Notes under the pieces: generated by a model
Seen by the model: only the letters and a program-made list of their open reading frames with translations
What the model was told of the DNA's origin: nothing
The model's database searches: none
Position numbers and translations under genes: made by a program
Assembly: GCA_014380365.1 (NCBI GenBank)
Contig: JACMJZ010000029.1
Coordinates: 1 to 64,000 of the forward strand
Origin: Pyrinomonadaceae bacterium
GTDB taxonomy: Bacteria; Acidobacteriota; Blastocatellia; Pyrinomonadales; Pyrinomonadaceae
Direction of reading: 5' to 3'
DNA length: 64,000 nt
In this document: positions 2,723-62,880 of the stretch, piece by piece
Layout of the letters: each line of letters opens with the position of its first letter
Position numbering within the stretch: the first letter of the stretch is position 1

Positions 2723-3008
2723 GCGATTTATTAGACCTTCATTTCAAAGTGACCCACCTACCATTAGTCTGCATGGGGTAAACCGGGCTGCGGATGTGCC
2801 TCACTGTCGGATTCCTACTGCATCAGAAAGATTTTTGAGCGGCCTGGTCTTTCCCTCCGCCGCCAATCCCTCCCTTTCGTGGGAATTTTCACCCGGGCAG
2901 GTGGCACCCTCATTGCACTTCCGCTCACCGCTCTAACAAAAGACCAGCGGCACGAGCGTCTCGCCCGTGCTCAAACTAAACCGCCCACAGAAAGTCGGAG
3001 AACTATTC

Positions 3009-3404
3009 ATGAAAAAGTATTTGACGTATTTACTCGCCAGCACGCTCGTGCTCGCTACCATCTCTTTGCCAGTCACCGCCAAACAGGGCGACACACAGGC
3101 AACAACAGTTGAGAGGATCAAGATCAAGATCGCCAAACTGGGAGTTGGTGCAAAGGCTAAAGCGACCGTCTTTCTAAAGGACGGAACCAAAAAGAAGGGC
3201 TACATCGCCCAGGCCGGCGATGACGATTTCGTGATTCGCGATCGGCAAACCGATGCAGCCACCACCATCCGCTACACAGACGTCGCGAAGGTGGATAACA
3301 ATAAAGGCCACTCCACCGCGCGTAACATCACCATCGGTGTCGCCGTCGGCGTGGGCGCAGTGCTCGCGGTGTTGGGTCTACTGATTGCCGGGCTCGACGA
3401 CTAA
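3009..3404 (+). CDS. Small exported or membrane protein with C-terminal TM helix
   Basis: Not assigned to a named family. The 131-residue product has an N-terminal signal-like segment (KKYLTYLLASTLVLATISLPVTA) and a central region of beta character (VFLKDGTKKKGYIAQAGDDDFVIRD), which resembles the small SH3/LSm-like barrel found in many short envelope proteins. A hydrophobic glycine/valine-rich helix lies near the end (ITIGVAVGVGAVLAVLGLLIAG). The ATG at 3009 is chosen because GGAG lies 8 nt upstream and the signal peptide begins there; an upstream in-frame ATG at 2967 would bury the signal. It stands alone between two repeat blocks. Confidence 0.7.
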   Translation: MKKYLTYLLASTLVLATISLPVTAKQGDTQATTVERIKIKIAKLGVGAKAKATVFLKDGTKKKGYIAQAGDDDFVIRDRQTDAATTIRYTDVAKVDNNKGHSTARNITIGVAVGVGAVLAVLGLLIAGLDD

Positions 3405-3419
3405 AGCAGGATCAAAACG

Positions 3420-3503
3420 ATCCACGAAATGTCACGAAGTACCACTAACACGAAGTACCACTAACAAGAGGTTCGTGTTAGTTCGTGTGGTTCGTGGATC
3501 GAT
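3420..3503. repeat. Inverted repeat of the CACGAA/TTCGTG type
   Basis: The left side reads ATCCACGAAATGTCACGAA and the right side TTCGTGTGGTTCGTGGAT, with a short ACGAAGTACCACTAAC duplication between. A second copy of this family is at 36939-37010. This one begins about 15 bp after the stop codon of the preceding gene. Confidence 0.65.
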
Positions 3504-3597
3504 TGTCGATTGTTCCGTCACACGTGTGACGCACCACCTGCGTCGGCATTGCGTCGCGCGTCTTGTCAAAACCACCTGCGTCAGCGGGTGGGCCCCC

Positions 3598-3640
3598 GCT
3601 GGGAGCGCAGGCATCCTGCCTGCAAATGAGCGCACAGCGC
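3598..3640. repeat. GCAGGCATCCTGCCTGC hairpin repeat
   Basis: Dispersed element made of a GCAGGCA/TGCCTGC hairpin followed by a GAGCGC...GCGCGAAC tail. Other full or partial copies in either orientation are at about 7815-7867, 40070-40097, 40672-40722 and 57187-57230. Confidence 0.65.
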
Positions 3641-3649
3641 GAACGGTGC

Positions 3650-3865
3650 CCGGAACGCCAAGGGCGTTCGCTAACTCCAGCCCAGGTTGCGCGTCGCGCT
3701 TTGTCAGAACCACCTGCGGTAACGCGTGCGCCGGAACGCCAACGGCGTTCGCTAACTTAGCCCAGGGTTGCGCTTTGTCAGAACCACCTGCGGTAGCGGG
3801 GGGCCGGAACGCCAACGGCGTTCGCTAACCTCAGCCCAGGGTTGCGCGTCGCGCGCTACCCTGGG
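3650..3865. repeat. Three tandem copies of a 73-81 bp repeat
   Basis: Units start near 3650, 3731 and 3804. Each opens with CCGGAACGCCAACGGCGTTC, continues GCTAAC..CAGCCCAGGGTTGCG, and the first two end in TTTGTCAGAACCACCTGCGG. Overlapping open frames here in both directions are produced by the repetition and are not credible genes. Confidence 0.75.
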
Positions 3866-4016
3866 AACACCAACCCCACAAGAATCTTTCGAACCCTGAA
3901 AGGGTTCGATAAGATCACATTCGCCTTTCAACGTGGGAGTCGTTGGTCACATCTCACCCCCACGTAGGGGCACGGCATGCCGTGCCCCTACAGGTCCCCT
4001 ATCTCCACCTCTCCGA

Positions 4017-4274
4017 GCAAAAAGCCCCGCGCGCCGAGCTACACCACTCCACCATTCCACCAAAAACCCTCGCGCGCCGAGCTACCGTGCTCCATCGTTC
4101 CACCAAAAACCCTCGCGCGCCGAGCTGATCAGCTCGGCAATCCGACCAAAATGCCTCACGCGCCGAGCTGATCAACTCGACAATCCGACCAAAAAGCCTC
4201 GCGCGCCGAGCTCCATAGCTCGGTCGTTCGACCAAAAAGCCGCAACGACGCAGCTCCTCAGGTGCATCGTCGCG
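4017..4274. repeat. Six-unit 43-bp tandem array, each unit able to form a hairpin
   Basis: Units begin at 4017, 4060, 4103, 4146, 4189 and 4232, each exactly 43 bp apart, opening CCAAAAA (or a variant) followed by GCGCGCCGAGCT. Unit three carries a perfect 20-bp palindrome, GCCGAGCTGATCAGCTCGGC. Unit five pairs CCGAGCT with AGCTCGG round CCAT. Others keep shorter or wobble-containing stems. Because 43 is not a multiple of three, a single reading frame cannot preserve the unit, so conservation is at the DNA/RNA level. The array lies immediately 3' of the minus-strand gene ending at 4322. A further GAGCTCC/GGAGCTC stem is at about 4280-4302. Confidence 0.8.
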
Positions 4275-4321
4275 GCCCTGAGCTCCACCACCGAGGAGCT
4301 CAACCTCAACATTTCAAACAC

Positions 4322-4816
4322 TTAGCCCGTGGTCGGGGGGGTATTGGGCGTGGGCGGCTGCGATTTTGGTTTGCTCGCCCGCTGAAAGCGCTCCCCGAGC
4401 TGGTCGGCCAGGGGCTTTAGTCCCGGCGTGGTCTTCGCCGCCGTCTTGATGTACTGGTAAGCCTGCATCGCCGCCTGCATCGCCTCCCCGCCAACCGCCG
4501 TGCGGGTGTCGTCGAGCTGTGAAACTACCGACTCGGCGAGCGCCTGGATTTCGGTGATGGCGGCAAACAAAGCGACGTCTTTCCCAAAGCCCAGCTGGTC
4601 GAAACTAGGCGGGAAGATCTTCGGATTCGCCTGCGCGCCTGCGAGCGCAGTTTGTACAAACGACAAACTGTCCGACCCGGTCTTAACGATCTTCTTGCGT
4701 TCGTCCACGGTCAGGTTAACGAGAAACGGAAGTTTGGTGAGCACGGCGGCAAATGCATCTTTCACAGCCTGTATGTCAGCCGCGGATAGTGTGGCGTCGA
4801 TATTTTGGTAAGGCAT
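4322..4816 (-). CDS. Hypothetical helical protein, 164 aa
   Basis: No family recognised. The product is soluble-looking and largely helical. The N-terminal half reads like LSAADIQAVKDAFAAVLTKL followed by TVDERKKIVKTGSDS, and the C-terminus is a short proline-rich tail (SQPPTPNTPPTTG). No signal peptide or TM segment is visible. It stands alone, with the 43-bp hairpin array directly downstream on its strand, which would make a long structured 3' untranslated region if cotranscribed. The start ATG is preceded by AAAGGAGTACTGATCT, containing a good ribosome-binding site (AAAGGAG). Confidence 0.7.
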   Translation of the reverse strand: MPYQNIDATLSAADIQAVKDAFAAVLTKLPFLVNLTVDERKKIVKTGSDSLSFVQTALAGAQANPKIFPPSFDQLGFGKDVALFAAITEIQALAESVVSQLDDTRTAVGGEAMQAAMQAYQYIKTAAKTTPGLKPLADQLGERFQRASKPKSQPPTPNTPPTTG

Positions 4817-4949
4817 AGATCAGTACTCCTTTGTTGAGGGTCACGAGCAGTTCACCCGAGAGGTTCACGGCCAGCGTGACGGGTTTCGTAGCAGATGTTT
4901 GACTGACCCGGGCGGTCAGCGCGTTCAAGTAAAATTATTCAGTAACAAA

Positions 4950-5005
4950 AGTGATTCGTTAACGGTCGTGAGCTTTAGTTAGTAACGGTTATGAGATATT
5001 CAGTT
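4950..5005. repeat. AT-rich imperfect direct repeat
   Basis: GTTAACGGTCGTGAG near 4958 and AGTAACGGTTATGAG near 4981 are imperfect copies about 23 bp apart, in a stretch that is visibly more AT-rich than the surroundings. It lies upstream of the 164-aa gene and could hold its regulatory region. The rest of 5006-5239 shows nothing that I can name. Confidence 0.3.
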
Positions 5006-5239
5006 AAAGTCTCGTGAGAAGGTGAGAAGCACTCTGCGAGTTCTTACTCATCACTCATCATTCTTAATTCATAATTTCCGCCAGCAGCCCTTCAGTGTGC
5101 CCGGACTTTACGCCCGCCCGAACCCCCAGTCAAGCACTTTTTCGACGCCCAGCTAACTCCTCGGATTCCGCAACTTCACAAAAGAGCGGATTCTCCGCAC
5201 GGAAACTATCGGATCCCAGCTCCGCCGAACCATCGAGGC

Positions 5240-5268
5240 TTGTCGGTGTTTTTTGAGTGATGTAATCT
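5240..5268 (+). promoter_or_regulatory. Possible promoter of the retron
   Basis: TTGTCG (5240-5245), a 17-bp spacer, and TAATCT (5263-5268) make a weak sigma-70-type promoter. The predicted start, about 5275, coincides with the first base of the retron a1 repeat at 5274, which is the main reason for proposing it. The -10 box matches only about half of the consensus. Confidence 0.35.
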
Positions 5269-5273
5269 CTTAC

Positions 5274-5436
5274 CGGTATGCGCGGCACGATTGACCTTCT
5301 GTCGTTGGTACAGCGATGGTTATGACAAGGTGCGCCGGAGATGCCTGTGATGTCTGGCCTATCCAACTTGGATTGTCAGTAGGTAACTAGTGACATTCTT
5401 TTCTCGGCAATAAGCAGAATCGTGTCGTGCATGCCG
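5274..5436 (+). ncRNA. Retron msr-msd non-coding RNA (putative)
   Basis: The RNA expected to template the retron's multicopy single-stranded DNA. Its two ends pair perfectly: a1 at 5274-5292 and a2 at 5418-5436 form 19 consecutive base pairs including three G-U pairs, the hallmark that closes a retron RNA. The base straight after a1 is a G (5293), a candidate for the branching guanosine. Inside, hairpins are visible at 5298-5312 (CTGT/ACAG), 5334-5358 (GCCGGA..AT with AT..TCTGGC), 5361-5373 (ATCCA/TGGAT) and 5375-5394 (GTCA.TAG with CTA.TGAC). The locus ends 13 bp before the start codon of a reverse transcriptase with retron motifs, which is the usual msr-msd-ret order. The exact msr/msd boundary was not assigned. 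Confidence 0.8.
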
Positions 5437-5449
5437 ACTATCAACACTT

Positions 5450-7111
5450 ATGACTGCCTCACCGCAGCGTGAAGAGATCAGAACACAGTTTACTTCTCTG
5501 AGAAGTAGATCAGATGTGGCGTCTCTTCTCGGCGTCACAGACAGAGCGCTGCGATATCGACTGTACGGCCTACCCATCCCGAGCCAATACGTAGTTTTTG
5601 AGATCCGGAAAAAGTCCGGAGGATTAAGGAGTATTGCCGCACCCATTCCTCCACTTAAGATCCTCCAGCGTCGCTTACGAAAAATCCTTGAATGTGTCTA
5701 CGAACCTAAGGACGTGGTTCACGGATTCACAGTCGAGCGCAGTATTAAGACAAATGCGACAAGGCACGAAAAGAGCAAGCATGTGCTTAATGTGGATATA
5801 TCTGAGTTCTTCCTTTCAATAAATCTTGGGCGAGTCCGTGGCATGTTTATGGCTGCTCCGTATAAATGCGAGAAAGAGGTCGCAACCGTTCTCGCGCAAA
5901 TCGCATGCTTAGAGGGTAAGCTTCCCCAAGGTGCGCCAACGTCTCCGATCATCTCAAATATGTTATGCGCGCGCCTCGATGCCCATATGAATAGACTGGC
6001 AGGTAGTTTTAAGTGCACGTACTCAAGGTATGCAGATGATTTAACGCTCTCGACTCTTCAAACAAAGTTTCCCAGAGAGGTCGCAGAGTTACGAATAGTG
6101 GACGGACAACCGAAATGTTTTGCAGGACCTAAGTTAATTCGGGTCCTGACTCGTCGTAATGGCTTCAAGATAAACCTCTCAAAAATTCGCCTCGCCAACC
6201 GCAGTCAACGTCAAGAAGTCACCGGTCTTGTTGTAAACGAAAAGGTCAATGTTCCTCGATTATTCGTACGAGAAATCCGAGCCATGCTTCATAACCTTCA
6301 CAAGAAGGGCGTAGAGAAATGCCAACAGGACTATGAAACAAATTACGCACGGCACCGGCGTCCTAGCTCTCCCGTGCCTCCCTTTCTGTGGGTACTTAGA
6401 GGCAAAGTTAGCTATGTCGGAATGATTCGGGGAGAAAACGACGAACTCTATCGGAAGCTCTTAAAACGTTTGGATGAATTGGCTCCGGGATTAGTGAAGG
6501 TTCCGGTGATCAAGGACGAACTCGATTCCATTTTCGAACATCTTTGGGCCATTCAGGTAGAGACGGAGGCGGGCGATGGTGGTCAGGGAACGGCTTTCAT
6601 GTTGCGAGGTGTTGGACTAGTTACTGCCTCACACGTGCTAGGAACCAAGAAAATTCTTGGTATCAAGATGCAATCAAGCGATGGAAGGGTAGAACGTGAA
6701 GCAACTGTCTTTCGGAGAGATGGCCTTCTGGATCTCGCAATCCTCGAATCTCCAGATCTTGATCCTAGCCGCGGCTTGGAAGCCAGCACGCTAAAATCCA
6801 CAAGGAAGATGGCAGTTACGCTATTGGGCTTTCCAAACCATAACACCGGAGATCCTGGGCATTTCGATCAGGGAATAGTTACCAGTATGCGAAGGAGCCC
6901 ACTTTCAGAGGATCAGATGTTCCTGATTAGCTGTCCTATTATTCACGGTCATAGTGGCGGACCTATTTTGGATAGTTCATCCAAGGTACTCGGTGTTGCA
7001 GTAAGGGGAGCTATTAGCCGGAAAGAAGCGGCGTTAACGGAATTTCACGCGGGGATGCCAATCGCGGCCATAGAAAAGTTGACTAACGAAATGGCTGAAC
7101 CTGAGAAGTAG
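5450..7111 (+). CDS. Retron-type reverse transcriptase fused to a trypsin-like serine protease
   Basis: A 553-residue two-domain protein. Residues 1-350 are a retron RT: an N-terminal region resembling the helical DNA/RNA-binding part of such RTs, KKSGGLR (54-60), the retron NAXXH motif as NATRH (102-106), first catalytic Asp in NVDISEFF (Asp116), LPQGAPTSP (158-166), the YADD active site (194-197), and the VTG triplet (257-259). Residues 365-545 are a trypsin-like peptidase domain: GQGTAFML, TASHV with His395, LLDLAIL with Asp428, and GHSGGP with Ser502, so the catalytic triad is complete. The RT should make msDNA from the RNA just upstream; the protease is presumably the effector or its trigger. 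The gene is visibly more AT-rich than its neighbours, which suggests acquisition. RT-protease fusions have, as I recall, been listed in retron surveys, but I know of no worked-out mechanism. Confidence 0.93.
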   Translation: MTASPQREEIRTQFTSLRSRSDVASLLGVTDRALRYRLYGLPIPSQYVVFEIRKKSGGLRSIAAPIPPLKILQRRLRKILECVYEPKDVVHGFTVERSIKTNATRHEKSKHVLNVDISEFFLSINLGRVRGMFMAAPYKCEKEVATVLAQIACLEGKLPQGAPTSPIISNMLCARLDAHMNRLAGSFKCTYSRYADDLTLSTLQTKFPREVAELRIVDGQPKCFAGPKLIRVLTRRNGFKINLSKIRLANRSQRQEVTGLVVNEKVNVPRLFVREIRAMLHNLHKKGVEKCQQDYETNYARHRRPSSPVPPFLWVLRGKVSYVGMIRGENDELYRKLLKRLDELAPGLVKVPVIKDELDSIFEHLWAIQVETEAGDGGQGTAFMLRGVGLVTASHVLGTKKILGIKMQSSDGRVEREATVFRRDGLLDLAILESPDLDPSRGLEASTLKSTRKMAVTLLGFPNHNTGDPGHFDQGIVTSMRRSPLSEDQMFLISCPIIHGHSGGPILDSSSKVLGVAVRGAISRKEAALTEFHAGMPIAAIEKLTNEMAEPEK

Positions 7112-7163
7112 CTCCCGGCACCCGTCGCAGTCGTTGGCCTAATCGAGGCCGGGCACTCCGCGC

Positions 7164-7457
7164 CTATTCCAAACGATCTCTCCAGTAACCGGGCCGGCGA
7201 TGTTGATGCATTACAGCGGCAACGAAGATTCGATCTGGCTGTATCTCGTAGAGAATTGTGAAGGGGAAACCGCTGACGAGTCGCTTGCGGATGTTTGCTC
7301 TGTCGATAGGTCCTGCTTCAGGAAATCGCTCGATGCGGCGAGTTGTTTCTTCTACTGCGGCCAGGAAATCCGAGCCGAGACCTTCGGACCTTTCTTCAAA
7401 AAGACGCGCCGACGCTATCATTTCATCGGAAGCTTCCGGATGAAAGATGGCCTTCAT
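7164..7457 (-). CDS. ParE/RelE-family toxin
   Basis: A 97-residue protein of the plasmid-stabilisation (ParE/RelE) toxin fold. It opens with the typical strand-helix (KAIFHPEASDEMIASARLFEE) and continues with the long helix ending in RIERFPEAGP. The characteristic RKRLVSGFPFTILYEIQPDRIFVAAVMHQHRRPGYW tail holds the basic and aromatic C-terminal residues of the family. Such toxins poison gyrase (ParE) or cut ribosome-bound mRNA (RelE); the target here is unknown. It overlaps the upstream antitoxin gene by 4 bp and lies convergent to the retron, 52 bp away. Confidence 0.88.
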   Translation of the reverse strand: MKAIFHPEASDEMIASARLFEERSEGLGSDFLAAVEETTRRIERFPEAGPIDRANIRKRLVSGFPFTILYEIQPDRIFVAAVMHQHRRPGYWRDRLE

Positions 7458-7687
7458 CGCTTGAGAGTTTCGCGAGCGTCACGAAAAGCATCCTTCGCCG
7501 GTATGCCCTGGACTTTTCCGCTGCGAAGCTCCTCAAGTCTCCGTTCAGCTTCTGCAAACCATAGCGCTTCAACGTTTGTCTCAACCTCATCGTCAAGAGT
7601 TGAAACCAGACGCTGGGCCAGCTGAACGCGATCCCTCAAAGGGAGCTTCATTGCATCGGCTGTGAGCTGTTCTAAGTGGGTGCTCAT
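7454..7687 (-). CDS. Antitoxin partner of the ParE-type toxin
   Basis: A 77-residue protein resembling the small addiction-module antitoxins with the motif LTADAMKLPLRDRVQLAQRLVSTLD, followed by a charged helix containing WFAEAERRLEELRSGKVQGIPAKDAF. This pattern (about 70-80 residues, 'LP..eR..La..L..SLd', then 'E...R..e...G') is typical of antitoxins paired with ParE. It is the first gene of a two-gene operon with a 4-bp overlap with the toxin, the usual antitoxin-toxin order. Expected to bind and neutralise the toxin and probably autoregulate the operon. Confidence 0.85.
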   Translation of the reverse strand: MSTHLEQLTADAMKLPLRDRVQLAQRLVSTLDDEVETNVEALWFAEAERRLEELRSGKVQGIPAKDAFRDARETLKR

Positions 7688-7734
7688 GCTTGTCTGAGAA
7701 TAGCAGAATGTGATGGGTTCGCTAAAGGAGTGGT

Positions 7735-7870
7735 GAGCCCTCCCTGACGGTCGGGCTAATGCCCCGGACTTTGCCCGCCCGCTGACGCAGGCGGTTCTGA
7801 CAAGCCCTTACGCGCGGGTTGTTCGCGCTACGCGCTCATTGCGGACAAGGATGTCCGCGCTCCCAGCCTG
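7735..7870. repeat. Dispersed repeat block between the TA pair and nrdJ
   Basis: Contains TCCCTGACGGTCGGGCT, a GCAGGCGGTTCTGACAAG stretch, and a TTCGCGCTACGCGCTCATTGC / GATGTCCGCGCTCCCAG copy of the GCAGGCATCCTGCCTGC element family. The CCCTGACGG..GGGCT motif recurs near 46798-46818 and 61358-61384. No gene is visible. Confidence 0.5.
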
Positions 7871-7883
7871 AGAGCTTCCAGCT

Positions 7884-10640
7884 TCACTTACACTTGCTAT
7901 AACCGCAATCCCTGCACATGTCGCAGCCGCTGGCGTGTTCGAGTTGGCCGTGGCACTCGGGGCAGATGCCGATCATGTTGGACATGATGGCGCCCGTGAC
8001 GCCGGTCAGGCCGGGTGTTGATGTCCCCTTCGAGCCGACTCCAGTGGGGGCTGTTCCCAGAGCGCCCGCAAGGCCAGTCGCGCCAAGGCCGCCGGCAATA
8101 CCAGCGGTGCCGGTTGAATCGCTGAGCGGAATCTGCGGAGCGCCGAGGTGCTGTTTCGCAACTGCGCGGGCGGAGTCGGGAAGGTTCTGCACGCGGCGGT
8201 TGGTGATCATGATGCACTCGGCCACCGCTTGTTCCGGCGAAGTCAACAGACGCTCGTTGAACCAGACAGCGTGTGTGCCCGTCACTTTGTTCAAGCTGTA
8301 GGCGACTTCCGCCGCGTCGAAACCGCCGCGCAGCATCTTCGAAGCGAGCAGTCCCACGCCGCCGCTGATAGGGCCGGTGGCAAACACTTCCTGAATCATG
8401 CGGCCATCGTGGTTGACTGTGACGTAAAGGTTTTGGCCGTCAAACGGAATTTGCCAGGTAGCGCCGCGCAACTCACGCGGCCGCTCGATGCGCAGCGCAG
8501 TTAACTTGGCTTCGGCGTCTGCCTGTTCCCTGATTGCCGCGCCAGCCTCAGCGCGCGCCAGACCTTCACTCTCAGGGTCGGCAGTAACAACAGGAACGAT
8601 ATGCGCGGCATCGGCATGGCTCGCCGGCGGATCGTCAACTATTTCAATGCCCGCGTCGGCGACGACATCGGTCTTCGCGTCTGCCACAGGAGCTTTCATC
8701 GAGGTCAGCACCTGATTGTCGCGCGAGCCGTCGCGGTAGTAGCTGACGGCCTTGCAACCAAGCTGGCGCCCAAGCCGGTAAAGACTGTCAACTGACTCAA
8801 TCGTGTCATCGACCGCGCCGTTGCAGGTCTTCGACACGCTGTTGTCTACATGACGCTGGGCGGCGGCGAGCACGTGCACATGCTGGTCGGCGCTGATGTT
8901 CATGGCCGAAATGAAATACTGCGGCAACTCATTCTCATGTTCGCAAACGTATTCCGACGCAGAATTAATTGAATCCTGCTCCGTCTGGTCCACGTCCAAA
9001 CCCAGAGCCTGGGCGGCGAGGGGATGAACGTAGGTCCGTGTGCCGAGCGTGTCCTTGCGCACGTAGGCCCAGGAGAAGTTTGGCTCGATGCCCGACGAAG
9101 TTTCCGCGACGAGCGAAATCGTTCCCGTAGGCGCGATGGTCGTCACTTCATAATTGCGCGGGGTTAGCGGCACATCGCGCGAGATGCCAATCGTGTTGTA
9201 GAGAAACTCTTCGTAAGCCTCGCGATTCGGCTCAAACTCGGGGAACGTGCCCTTCTCGGCGCCAATCTTGATGCTGGCGTTCCAGGCCTCGCGGCGAATG
9301 AAGCCCATCATCTCTTCCATCAAATCGATTGAAGCAGGCGAGCCGTAAGTCACCTTCAGATTCAGGCAGAGATCGGCAAAGCCCATGATGCCCAGGCCCA
9401 CGGGGCGCGTGCGGGTGACGACATCGTTGATTTCCGGCAGCGGCCAGGCGCAGGTGTCGATCACGTTGTCGAGGAAACGCGTGCAGAGATGGGTGACTTC
9501 ACGCAGCCGGTCCCAGTCGACGCGGTTCTCAGCGTCGTAGAACTTGTTCAAGTCGATCGAGCCGAGGTTGCAGGAGTTTGAGAAGTGGAGAAACTGCTCG
9601 CCGCAGGGGTTACACGAATAGATCGGCCCCATCGACTTCATCATGTGATTGTGACGATTCACTTCATCGATGAACGCGATTCCCGGCTCCGCATACTTGT
9701 GTGCGCTGGCAATGATCCGGTTCCAGATGTCGGGGGCGTAAACCATGCCCGGACGCGGCGGTTCCTCGATCGAAGTGTTCGAAAGATCAGCGGTCAGGAA
9801 TGACTGGCGATCGCAGAAAGTAACTGTAGAACCATCTGGGCGTCGGTAAACTACATACTCGTCATCGCGTACTGGATCGTAGATAGGATCGGTCCACGAC
9901 TCGCCGTTGAAATCGAGTTGAAACCATTCGTTGTTATCGACAGCCTTGAGAAATTTGTCGGTCACGTTAACCGAGATATTGAAGTTAGTCAGTGAATGCT
10001 GATCGTTTTTCGCGTGAATGAAACGCAGCACGTCGGGATGGGTCACGCGCATCATGCCCATGTTAGCGCCGCGACGAACGCCGCCCTGCTTCACCACGTC
10101 AGTCACCTGATTGACGATGTTCATGAACGATACGGGGCCCGACGCCACGCCGCGCGTGGAACCAACTAAGGCGCCGTGGGGTCGCAGGAACTCATAGGTC
10201 ATTCCGGTACCGCCGCCAGTCTGATGAATCGTCGCGGCAGCTTTGGCGTGATCCATGATTCCAGTAATCGAATCGGGCACATCGAGTACAAAGCAGGCGG
10301 CGAGCTGGCCGTTGGCTTTGCCGGCGTTAACCAGGCAGGGCGTGTTTGGCACAAACTCACGCGCCAGCATCACCTCGCTCATTGCATCAAAAAACTGATC
10401 GCGCTTCTGCGAATCCTTCTCCGCAGCCGAAACATGTCCCACCACGCGACGAACGATATCCGGCCACTCCTCGAGCGCTCGCCCCTTCGCGTCCTTGAGC
10501 GAGTAGCGCTTGCTTACGACACGTTGAGCGTTGAGTCCCATTGGCTGCGTCTTGCGACGCACAGCTGGATTGGCCGGCTCGGTTGTGTGGGAAGAAACGT
10601 TTGCTGCTGCGGGGGTTGTTTTGCCAATGGCTGCGCTCAT
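7884..10640 (-). CDS. nrdJ: Adenosylcobalamin-dependent (class II) ribonucleoside-diphosphate reductase
   Basis: Makes deoxyribonucleotides from ribonucleotides using a B12-generated thiyl radical, so no oxygen-dependent subunit is needed. The 918-residue protein shows the redox Cys in AACFVLD (Cys116), a Gly-rich HQTGGGTGM segment (139-147), the catalytic SCNPCGE (Asn344, Cys346, Glu348), and [21 protein letters not shown] Gly/Ala/Thr-rich linker leads to a C-terminal zinc-ribbon-like segment with CPECHG and [12 protein letters not shown]; such Cys pairs re-reduce the active site. It is a single-gene transcript with a strong promoter and a structured leader of about 210 nt. No class I nrdAB genes lie in the window. 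Confidence 0.97.
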
Positions 10641-20996: not shown

Positions 20997-21232
20997 CAGC
21001 CTGGAAGGCTGACAGAGAGTAGCCGGTGGTCGTAGCGTAGCGGCGACCACCGGAACAGGATAGACAACAACTCGCAACCTGAAGGGTTGCCAGAAAGAGC
21101 GGTGGCACTCCTATGAAAGCGTGTCAGGAAACCGTGGCACCCCGCCGGGGTGCGGGCCAACTGTTCGCGACCTTCCGGTAGTCTTCGCTACGCTACGACC
21201 ACCGGCTACTTTCTGACAGCCTTCCAGGCTGA
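20997..21232. repeat. Inverted pair of GTAGCCGGTGGTCG repeats with nested hairpins
   Basis: AGCCTGGAAGGCTGACAGAG and GTAGCCGGTGGTCGTAGCGT at 20997-21045 are mirrored at 21170-21232 by CTACGACCACCGGCTAC then TTCTGACAGCCTTCCAGGCT. Between them lie ACCTGAAGGGTTGCC and a GTGGCACCCCGCCGGGGTGC hairpin. Together these make a composite inverted element of about 235 bp without any gene. Confidence 0.7.
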
Positions 21233-27598: not shown

Positions 27599-27859
27599 AA
27601 TGAGTTCGTGGCACTGCCCTTCCTGTGGGCCTACGAGGTTAGCTGACGGGCTCGAACTGGAAGTGTTCTACACAAAGCGCCCTGTCGAGTGCTTTATGAT
27701 TCGCCCCGGGTTTCGACTGCGCGAAACCTGTGGTTCCCCCGCGTTGCGCGCGCTTTGAGCGATGGGCAACTTCGGCAGACATTAAATTTTCAACACCGGA
27801 ATACTACTCCTCGAACATCTTCGAATCAACTCGAAAGATTATTCTTCAACTCCTCGTTT

Positions 27860-49953: not shown

Positions 49954-50178
49954 GAGCCCGCGCAAGCGGGCGAAAGCATAAAGCCCAGGGTGGAGCGAAG
50001 CGGAACCCTGGGTGTGCTGCCGACATATCGATCAGCCCGCGTAGCGGGCGACAGCGGCGTTGTTATTGATCAAATTCTGTCGCCCGTTCCACGGGCTCGA
50101 ATTCATTTCGAGAAGTGCCCCAGGGTTTCGCTTCGCTCCACCCTGGGCTTTATGCTTCCGCCTGCTCCGCAGGCTCGG
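49954..50178. repeat. Composite inverted repeat with 38-bp arms and nested palindromes
   Basis: Arms 49975-50012 and 50119-50156 match at 37 of 38 bases. Nested inside and around are GCCCGCGCAAGCGGGC (49956-49971), AGCCCGCGTAGCGGGCGA (50034-50051) and GCCTGCTCCGCAGGC (50160-50174). It occupies most of the 49848-50191 spacer, between the M1 gene and the end of glgP. Confidence 0.8.
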
Positions 50179-52410: not shown

Positions 52411-52515
52411 AATTTGAAGAATCAAAGAGTCAACTCAAAAACAAAGCGGTTCTTATAACACAGAATGCATTAGTCCGCAGGTTACACCGATTACACCGAA
52501 CTGACGGGGTTGTAG

Positions 52516-52627
52516 TGAAGTCAGTACCACCACGCGGTAGCGGGTGGTTCCCGACTAGCAGCGACTCATCACCGAACTTAGATGCGCAACGAGACCCACC
52601 CGCCACCGCGTGGTGGTACTGACTTCA
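52516..52627. repeat. TGAAGTCAGTACCACCACG inverted repeat overlapping a stop codon
   Basis: Arms 52516-52547 and 52596-52627 match at 31 of 32 bases. The right arm ends exactly at the stop codon of the macrodomain gene (52625-52627). A second copy is at 60570-60676. Confidence 0.8.
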
Positions 52628-53191
52628 TTTCTGCTCAAGTTCCTGATGTTTAAGGAATACCTCGGCGTCGCGGCGCTGAAAGAAAATGAGCCGAACTTCC
52701 TTCACCTCTTGCGCAGCGGTCAGAAATCGGGCGACTGCTTGTGAGGAGACTTGAGCGGCTTCGTCCTGAGGATATCCGAACACGCCAGTAGAAATTGCTG
52801 GAAAGGCGATTGAATCGAGCGAATGTCTTTCAGCGAGCGTCAACGAACTCTCATAACACGCCGCGAGCAATTCGGATTCGCGTCCACCCGCCTGGCCATA
52901 GACGGGTCCCACCGTGTGAATGACAAATCGCGCCGGGAGATCTCCCGCCGTAGTGATAACCGCTTCGCCGGTCGGTAACCCATCGGGAAACTGTGCTCGC
53001 CTGATTTCCCTGCACGCCTCCAGAATTGCCGGCCCACCCGCGCGATGAATCGCGCCATCCACTCCGCCGCCGCCAAGCAGCGAGGAGTTGGCTGCGTTCA
53101 CGATTGCACCGACATTCTGGCGGGTGATATCTCCAACGACGATCCCCACGCGACCGCCGAGGAAAGTCTCTTCTGGTTTGGAGTCCATCAT
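52625..53191 (-). CDS. Macrodomain ADP-ribose hydrolase
   Basis: 188 residues. VGDITRQNVGAIVNAANSSL and GGGGVDGAIHRAGG carry the ADP-ribose-binding signature, followed by FPAISTGVFGYPQDEAA. It matches the O-acetyl-ADP-ribose deacetylase (YmdB/MacroD) branch; likely removes ADP-ribose or its acetyl derivative. The C-terminus (EVRLIFFQRRDAEVFLKHQE) is normal for the family. Its stop codon sits inside an inverted repeat. Confidence 0.92.
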   Translation of the reverse strand: MMDSKPEETFLGGRVGIVVGDITRQNVGAIVNAANSSLLGGGGVDGAIHRAGGPAILEACREIRRAQFPDGLPTGEAVITTAGDLPARFVIHTVGPVYGQAGGRESELLAACYESSLTLAERHSLDSIAFPAISTGVFGYPQDEAAQVSSQAVARFLTAAQEVKEVRLIFFQRRDAEVFLKHQELEQK

Positions 53192-62726: not shown

Positions 62727-62880
62727 TTCACCACAGAGGGCGCAGAGGAACACAGAGGATGAATTCGGTATATCAGGCAGTTCGCGACGGATGTTCGTCC
62801 AGGATGGAATCCACCGGTTTGTCATTCATGCTATCAGTCCAAATGCAGCCTCTGTGTTCCTCTGTGTCCTCTGTGGTGAA
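62727..62880. repeat. CACAGAGG inverted repeat with 32-bp arms
   Basis: Arms 62727-62758 and 62849-62880 match at 30 of 32 bases (TTCACCACAGAGG and AACACAGAGG steps). It fills the spacer between the POTRA gene and the hydrolase gene. Confidence 0.8.

What the first reader, a model, noticed from the sequence alone, without database searches (positions are those of the whole stretch)
5274..5436. Retron msr-msd locus with a 19-bp a1/a2 stem, 13 bp from the RT start
Seen: 5274-5292 and 5418-5436 pair over 19 consecutive positions with three G-U pairs, with a G straight after a1, four internal hairpins and a weak promoter whose predicted start is at the a1 end. Known: retron RNA is closed by a1/a2 pairing and lies upstream of the RT gene. 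Inference: this is the msDNA template. The internal hairpins do not look like one single long msd stem, which may be a feature of protease-type retrons.
Basis: partly seen in the sequence, partly recalled or inferred. Interest (0 to 1): 0.85.

Follow-up and report, generated by a model that had tools for sequence, protein, structure and literature searches.

The report
Protease-type (type XI) retron with its msr-msd
An acidobacterium carries a retron, a small immune element that copies a piece of its own RNA into DNA, whose copying enzyme is fused to a trypsin-like protease; the stretch found here is the RNA template, and its key stem is conserved by compensating changes across dozens of distant relatives.

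Summary
The gene (5450-7111) is an RT fused to an HtrA-like serine protease and hits PADLOC RT-Protease_XI at 1e-159, i.e. a type XI retron. The refutation test was run. In 45 non-redundant type XI homologues the upstream arms pair with their own partner far better than with partners from other loci (28/45 beat all 88 swaps; 0/20,000 permutations; window z = 8.9). A covariance model built from relatives without the window finds 5279-5432(+) and nothing else in 64 kb (E 2e-4). The RNA shares a core with type I-C (Ec67) retrons: a1/a2 ending AUU/AAU, a covarying hairpin, an AAGGU-type element, the msd, and AAGCNG just before a2. By analogy with Ec67, G5293 is the likely priming base and A5416 the first copied base. 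The internal folding does not set protease-type retrons apart. This is a new member of a known kind. The more interesting by-product: about half of the type XI RNAs have A, not G, at the priming position. msDNA production, trigger and protease target are untested.

The parts
5240..5268 (+). Putative promoter: TTGTCG (5240-5245), 17-nt spacer, TAATCT (5263-5268), 5 nt before a1; predicted start at the 5' end of a1
   Evidence: Sequence; weak by itself, but -10-like boxes a few nt upstream of a1 are enriched across relatives
5274..5292 (+). a1, 5' arm of the closing stem
   Evidence: 19 pairs with 5418-5436; swap test z 8.9
5293..5293 (+). Predicted branching (priming) guanosine, directly after the AUU/AAU end of the stem
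   Evidence: Same place as rG15 of Ec67/Eco2; G in 16/41 type XI and 13/21 type I-C RNAs. Inferred, not mapped
5299..5319 (+). msr hairpin HP1, core stem CUGUCG/CGAUGG
   Evidence: Same hairpin in type I-C and XI relatives with covariation at 6 of 7 pairs
5327..5331 (+). Conserved AAGGU-type element after HP1; can also pair with ACCUU 5294-5298
   Evidence: Alignments; MFE
5332..5417 (+). Predicted msd (template) domain, closed by GCC-GGAGA (5334-5341) / UCUCGGC (5402-5408) in one of two near-equal folds; ends AAUAAGCAG (5409-5417)
   Evidence: Fold; 3' motif RUAAGCNG conserved. First copied base predicted A5416 by analogy with Ec67; the 3' end of the cDNA is not predictable
5418..5436 (+). 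a2, 3' arm of the closing stem, 13 nt before the RT start
5450..7111 (+). Retron RT (NAxxH 102-106, YADD 194-197, VTG 257-259) fused to HtrA-like serine protease (about 365-545; H395, D428, S502), 553 aa
   Evidence: PADLOC RT-Protease_XI 1.2e-159; Pfam RVT_1 and Trypsin_2; triad and RT motifs invariant or nearly so in 62 homologues; AlphaFold pLDDT 92.8, best PDB matches retron Eco2 RT and Deg/HtrA proteases

Best explanation
5274-5436 is the msr-msd RNA of a type XI (RT-protease) retron. It is probably transcribed from a promoter just upstream of a1, together with the RT-protease gene. The a1/a2 stem closes the RNA and presents G5293 to the RT, which primes from its 2'-OH and copies the msd from about A5416 towards the msr, giving branched msDNA that stays bound to the RT. 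As in the related RT-Toprim retron Eco2, the msDNA-RT complex most likely keeps the fused effector, here an HtrA-like protease, inactive until phage infection disturbs it; the freed protease then cleaves proteins and stops the infected cell. Shown: anatomy, covariation, family membership, intact catalytic residues. Inferred: msDNA synthesis, branch point, inhibition and release, proteolytic killing, antiphage role. The confidence given is for the msr-msd/type XI identification; for the inhibit-and-release protease mechanism I would say about 0.6.
For: RT-Protease_XI hit; Trypsin_2; triad H395/D428/S502 in 62/62 homologues; confident model matching Eco2 RT plus Deg/HtrA proteases. a1/a2 fold z -4.6; cognate versus swapped arms: 28/45 better than all 88 swaps, 0/20,000 permutations. 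Independent covariance model hits only here in the window, E 1.8e-4. HP1 covariation 0/500 shuffles. Promoter position in relatives. Ec67 branch rG15 directly after a1. Patchy distribution: absent from the searched congeners and sitting in a ~4.5-kb stretch missing from two congeners, as expected of a defence gene.
Against: No msDNA, transcript or phage assay. The priming context AUUGA differs from the described AGC/CAGA contexts (PMC6868368). The -10 box is poor (3/6). The msd fold is ambiguous. No conserved partner or substrate gene was found near 44 type XI loci, so the protease target is unknown.
Confidence: 0.93

Rival explanations
1. The stem is a transcription attenuator, terminator or translation-control structure of the RT-protease mRNA, or one of the genome's many inverted repeats, not a reverse-transcription template.
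For: a2 lies 13 nt before the start codon; the genome has many dispersed repeats and the window has four stronger inverted repeats with similar spacing.
Against: Arms covary across phyla at the same place next to retron RTs; conserved HP1 and AAGCNG elements inside; same architecture as Ec67, where msDNA is proven; no T-run after a2.
Confidence: 0.03
2. Genuine msr-msd, but the locus is decayed or makes RT-DNA for a role outside phage defence.
For: No searched congener keeps it; weak -10 box.
Against: RT and protease active-site residues intact, no stops; a1/a2 intact; lies in a variable stretch with a ParE-type toxin-antitoxin pair.
Confidence: 0.12
3. The protease acts by cleaving the neighbouring antitoxin (7454-7687), freeing the ParE-like toxin.
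For: The pair lies directly downstream in the same variable stretch.
Against: Opposite strand; no toxin-antitoxin pair recurs near other type XI retrons, only integrases and resolvases do.
Confidence: 0.03

Closest known systems
Type XI retrons (RT-Protease_XI in PADLOC; type system of Mestre et al. 2020, paper not held here)
   Same: RT fused to trypsin-like protease, single gene; msr-msd upstream in the relatives examined here
   Different: Only 48% identical to the nearest homologue found (Pyrinomonadaceae, L013); no experimentally studied member found in the searchable literature
Retron Eco2 (Ec67), type I-C, RT-Toprim
   Same: RT (solved structures 9lm3, 9i2f are the best matches), a1/a2 stem, G right after a1, HP1 hairpin, effector fused to the C-terminus
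   Different: Effector is a protease, not Toprim; priming context AUUGA instead of CAGA; AUU/AAU end of the stem
RT-Toprim retrons of Cyanobacteria and Chloroflexota (PADLOC I-C, some XII)
   Same: Nearly the same RNA core: AAUUGA, hairpin with UUGAUCCUGC loop, AAGG, RUAAGCNGAAU
   Different: Different effector domain
Nuclease-protease pairs in Hachiman, Avs, Lamassu and DRT (PMC12799240)
   Same: Trypsin-like protease fused to a defence enzyme
   Different: There an MBL-fold nuclease gene sits upstream and is activated by the protease; no such gene here and no recurring partner near other type XI loci

Membership tests
Retron | RT of the retron clade with YADD, NAxxH (region X) and VTG (region Y) | tested here: met
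   Foldseek best hits are retron RTs
Retron | Structured RNA upstream of the RT closed by a1/a2 inverted repeats | tested here: met
Retron | Priming guanosine at the inner end of a1 | tested here: met
   G5293 present; its use as primer is not mapped; context is AUUGA, not AGC/CAGA
Retron | msDNA with 2'-5' branch made in cells | not testable with these tools
   needs nucleic-acid extraction from cells
Type XI retron | RT fused at its C-terminus to a trypsin-like protease with intact triad | tested here: met
Type XI retron | RT groups with other type XI RTs | tested here: met
   Quick tree: sister to L013 (support 99) within the main type XI group; deeper forks have modest support and a few protease fusions fall among Toprim RTs
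Type XI retron | Antiphage activity | not testable with these tools
   no assay
Rfam RNA families | Match to an Rfam retron RNA model | tested here: not met
   No Rfam retron hit in the window at gathering score; an Ec67-family locus also has none even at E<=1, so the library does not cover this group
Nuclease-protease pair systems | Upstream MBL-fold nuclease gene | tested here: not met
   Neighbours are an unknown 164-aa gene and a toxin-antitoxin pair; no recurring partner

The most novel reading that the evidence does not exclude
Type XI retrons fall into two RNA classes by the base right after the AUU/AAU end of the a1/a2 stem: G (this one, most Bacillota, most RT-Toprim relatives) or A (most proteobacterial members). 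11 type XI RNAs, chiefly proteobacterial, have no G at all between a1 and the first hairpin. If the A is the branch point, these retrons prime reverse transcription from an adenosine, against the textbook priming guanosine.
Probability: 0.35. Interest if true: 0.7.

Novelty: new member of a known kind. Interest (0 to 1): 0.45.

Why it matters
Protease-effector retrons are a catalogued type, but no experimental study or structure of one turned up in the literature and PDB searches made here. This gives a defined template RNA, a predicted branch point and first copied base, an intact triad and a structural model, so msDNA mapping and a catalytic-serine test can be done at once. The cross-phylum alignment shows that RT-Toprim and RT-protease retrons share one RNA core while effectors change, and it exposes a class of retron RNAs without the usual priming G, which makes the 'always guanosine' rule directly testable.

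Tried and rejected
Single-protein scans of genome contigs and viral contigs found nothing; the alignment query solved it. Duplex energies over long windows were too noisy and were replaced by ungapped-helix swaps. MAFFT plus RNAalifold on full-length proteobacterial RNAs missed a1/a2 because arm lengths differ. The MSA-free structure job gave a useless model. Rejected: conserved partner gene; branched msd as a hallmark of protease retrons; nuclease-protease pair. Mestre et al. 2020 is not held and the retron census paper was not found in the library, so whether type XI ncRNAs were drawn before could not be checked.

Full report
WHAT IS THERE. The fold of 5265-5445 contains the complete stem, -72.1 kcal/mol, z -4.6 against dinucleotide shuffles, 0 of 200 as good. 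An inverted repeat of this strength is not by itself remarkable in this window, where four stronger ones with similar spacing exist, so the case has to rest on context and conservation.

THE GENE. 5450-7111 encodes 553 aa: RT (RVT_1, 52-260) and a trypsin-like peptidase (Trypsin_2, 380-516). The best PADLOC families are the two RT-Protease_XI models, 1.2e-159 and 2.4e-159. The triad H395, D428, S502 and the RT residues N102, H106, YADD, VTG are invariant or nearly so in 62 homologues. An AlphaFold model from 42 homologues has mean pLDDT 92.8. Its nearest solved structures are retron Eco2 (Ec67) for the RT half and Deg/HtrA proteases for the other half (sequence profile). No PDB entry of an RT-protease retron was found.

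REFUTATION TEST. The finding would fail if a1/a2 did not covary. I collected homologues from genome contigs, viral contigs and plasmids, 62 of them complete RT-proteases. A closing helix at the same place was found in 52 of the type XI loci examined, spanning about 115-180 nt and ending from some 50 nt before to some 25 nt past the RT start, with arms of unrelated sequence. To avoid circularity, arm regions were fixed relative to the RT start and each 5' region was paired with its own and with every other locus's 3' region: in 28 of 45 non-redundant loci the own partner beats all 88 swaps, in 33 it is among the top three, no permutation of 20,000 reaches the sum, and the window scores z 8.9. 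A covariance model was then built from 24 relatives without the window (A5, R1). Searched over both strands of the 64 kb it gives one hit up to E = 10: 5279-5432 (+), E 1.8e-4.

ANATOMY BY COMPARISON. Type XI RNAs and RT-Toprim (I-C) RNAs share the order: -10 box, a1, a short AUU-type end of the stem, a base that is usually a purine, msr hairpin HP1, an AAGGU-like element, msd, an AAG motif (AAGCNG or AAGAG), AAU, a2. HP1 is supported by covariation: helix 2 has 92% paired cells and changes on both sides at 6 of 7 pairs; for the whole structure 0 of 500 shuffles reach the covariation score, and slid versions are far lower. In Ec67 the branching rG15 is joined to dT1 (PMC12405507) and by sequence follows the a1 arm directly, with AAGGAG before a2; the Ec67 sequence used was confirmed at 100% in E. 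coli genomes annotated as Ec67 family. The window has G5293 after a1 and AAGCAG (5412-5417) before a2, which predicts priming at G5293 and first copying at A5416.

THE MSD. Folded alone, the window's msd has two folds within 0.3 kcal/mol, one of which closes the whole domain with GCC-GGAGA/UCUCGGC. Across relatives 23 of 45 type XI RNAs have an unbranched msd hairpin of at least 40 nt, against 18 of 24 RNAs of the Toprim group; the window's longest is 35 nt. So the remark describes this sequence's minimum-energy fold and is not a property of the type.

SURROUNDINGS. The genome carries one copy and the congeners searched have none. Relative to two congeners, about 4.5 kb between the gene at 2967-3404 and the ribonucleotide reductase gene at 7884 is extra. 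It holds a tandem repeat, a 164-aa gene, the retron and a ParE/antitoxin pair, flanked by inverted copies of a dispersed genomic repeat. The closest homologue lies beside a tyrosine-recombinase-like gene. This pattern fits a mobile defence gene. In 44 type XI loci no partner gene recurs except integrases, resolvases and one small unidentified cluster, so the module appears to be one gene plus one RNA.

HOW IT PROBABLY WORKS. Shown: structure, conservation, family, intact active sites. Inferred: RT-made branched msDNA stays on the RT and, as in Eco2 (PMC12405507), the complex holds the effector in an inactive form; a phage factor that alters the msDNA or RT frees the HtrA-like protease, which cleaves cell or phage proteins and aborts infection. 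The substrate is unknown. A literature search found no experimental work on this type; the paper that defined the types is not held.

A SIDE RESULT. In 41 type XI RNAs that could be scored, the base after the inner end of the stem is A in 20 and G in 16. In 11 type XI RNAs, chiefly proteobacterial, there is no G at all between a1 and HP1. The published rule is a priming guanosine, with Se72 noted as lacking an apparent one (PMC6868368). Whether the A-class primes from A is open and easy to test. The inner-helix assignment is rule-based and can err in single loci.

VERDICT. A well-supported msr-msd of a type XI retron, a new member of a known kind; interest comes from the untested effector type and the A/G priming question.

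Noticed in passing
L063, L008, L060, L138, L093, L075, L094, L038, L048 (upstream of RT-protease genes): Type XI retron RNAs with no G between a1 and the first msr hairpin; the base after the stem is mostly A. Possible non-guanosine priming.
   Followed up: partly
L047 (Corallococcus), L015 (Anaerolineae): Protease-fused RTs that fall among RT-Toprim RTs in a quick tree, suggesting that effector domains were swapped more than once on a common RT/RNA core.
   Followed up: no
window 3405-7875: About 4.5 kb absent from two congeners between a 145-aa gene and the ribonucleotide reductase gene; flanked by inverted copies (3562-3644, 7773-7867) of a dispersed repeat with about 45 matches in the genome.
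   Followed up: partly
window 4012-4284: Tandem 43-bp repeat, about five diverged copies, with inner palindromes such as CGAGCTGATCAGCTCG.
   Followed up: no
window 7164-7687 (-): ParE-like toxin and addiction-module antitoxin pair directly downstream of the retron.
   Followed up: no
window 4322-4816 (-): 164-aa protein without Pfam or NCBIfam match, upstream neighbour of the retron.
   Followed up: no
window 27613-27787 (-): c-di-AMP riboswitch (ydaO/yuaA), Rfam E 1.1e-13.
   Followed up: no
window 49974-50157, 62727-62880, 21013-21215, 52514-52629: Long inverted repeats (25-39 uninterrupted pairs) with 100-200 nt span, stronger than a1/a2.
   Followed up: no
L173 about 470-1453: Tyrosine-recombinase-like gene convergent with the closest homologous retron.
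   Followed up: no
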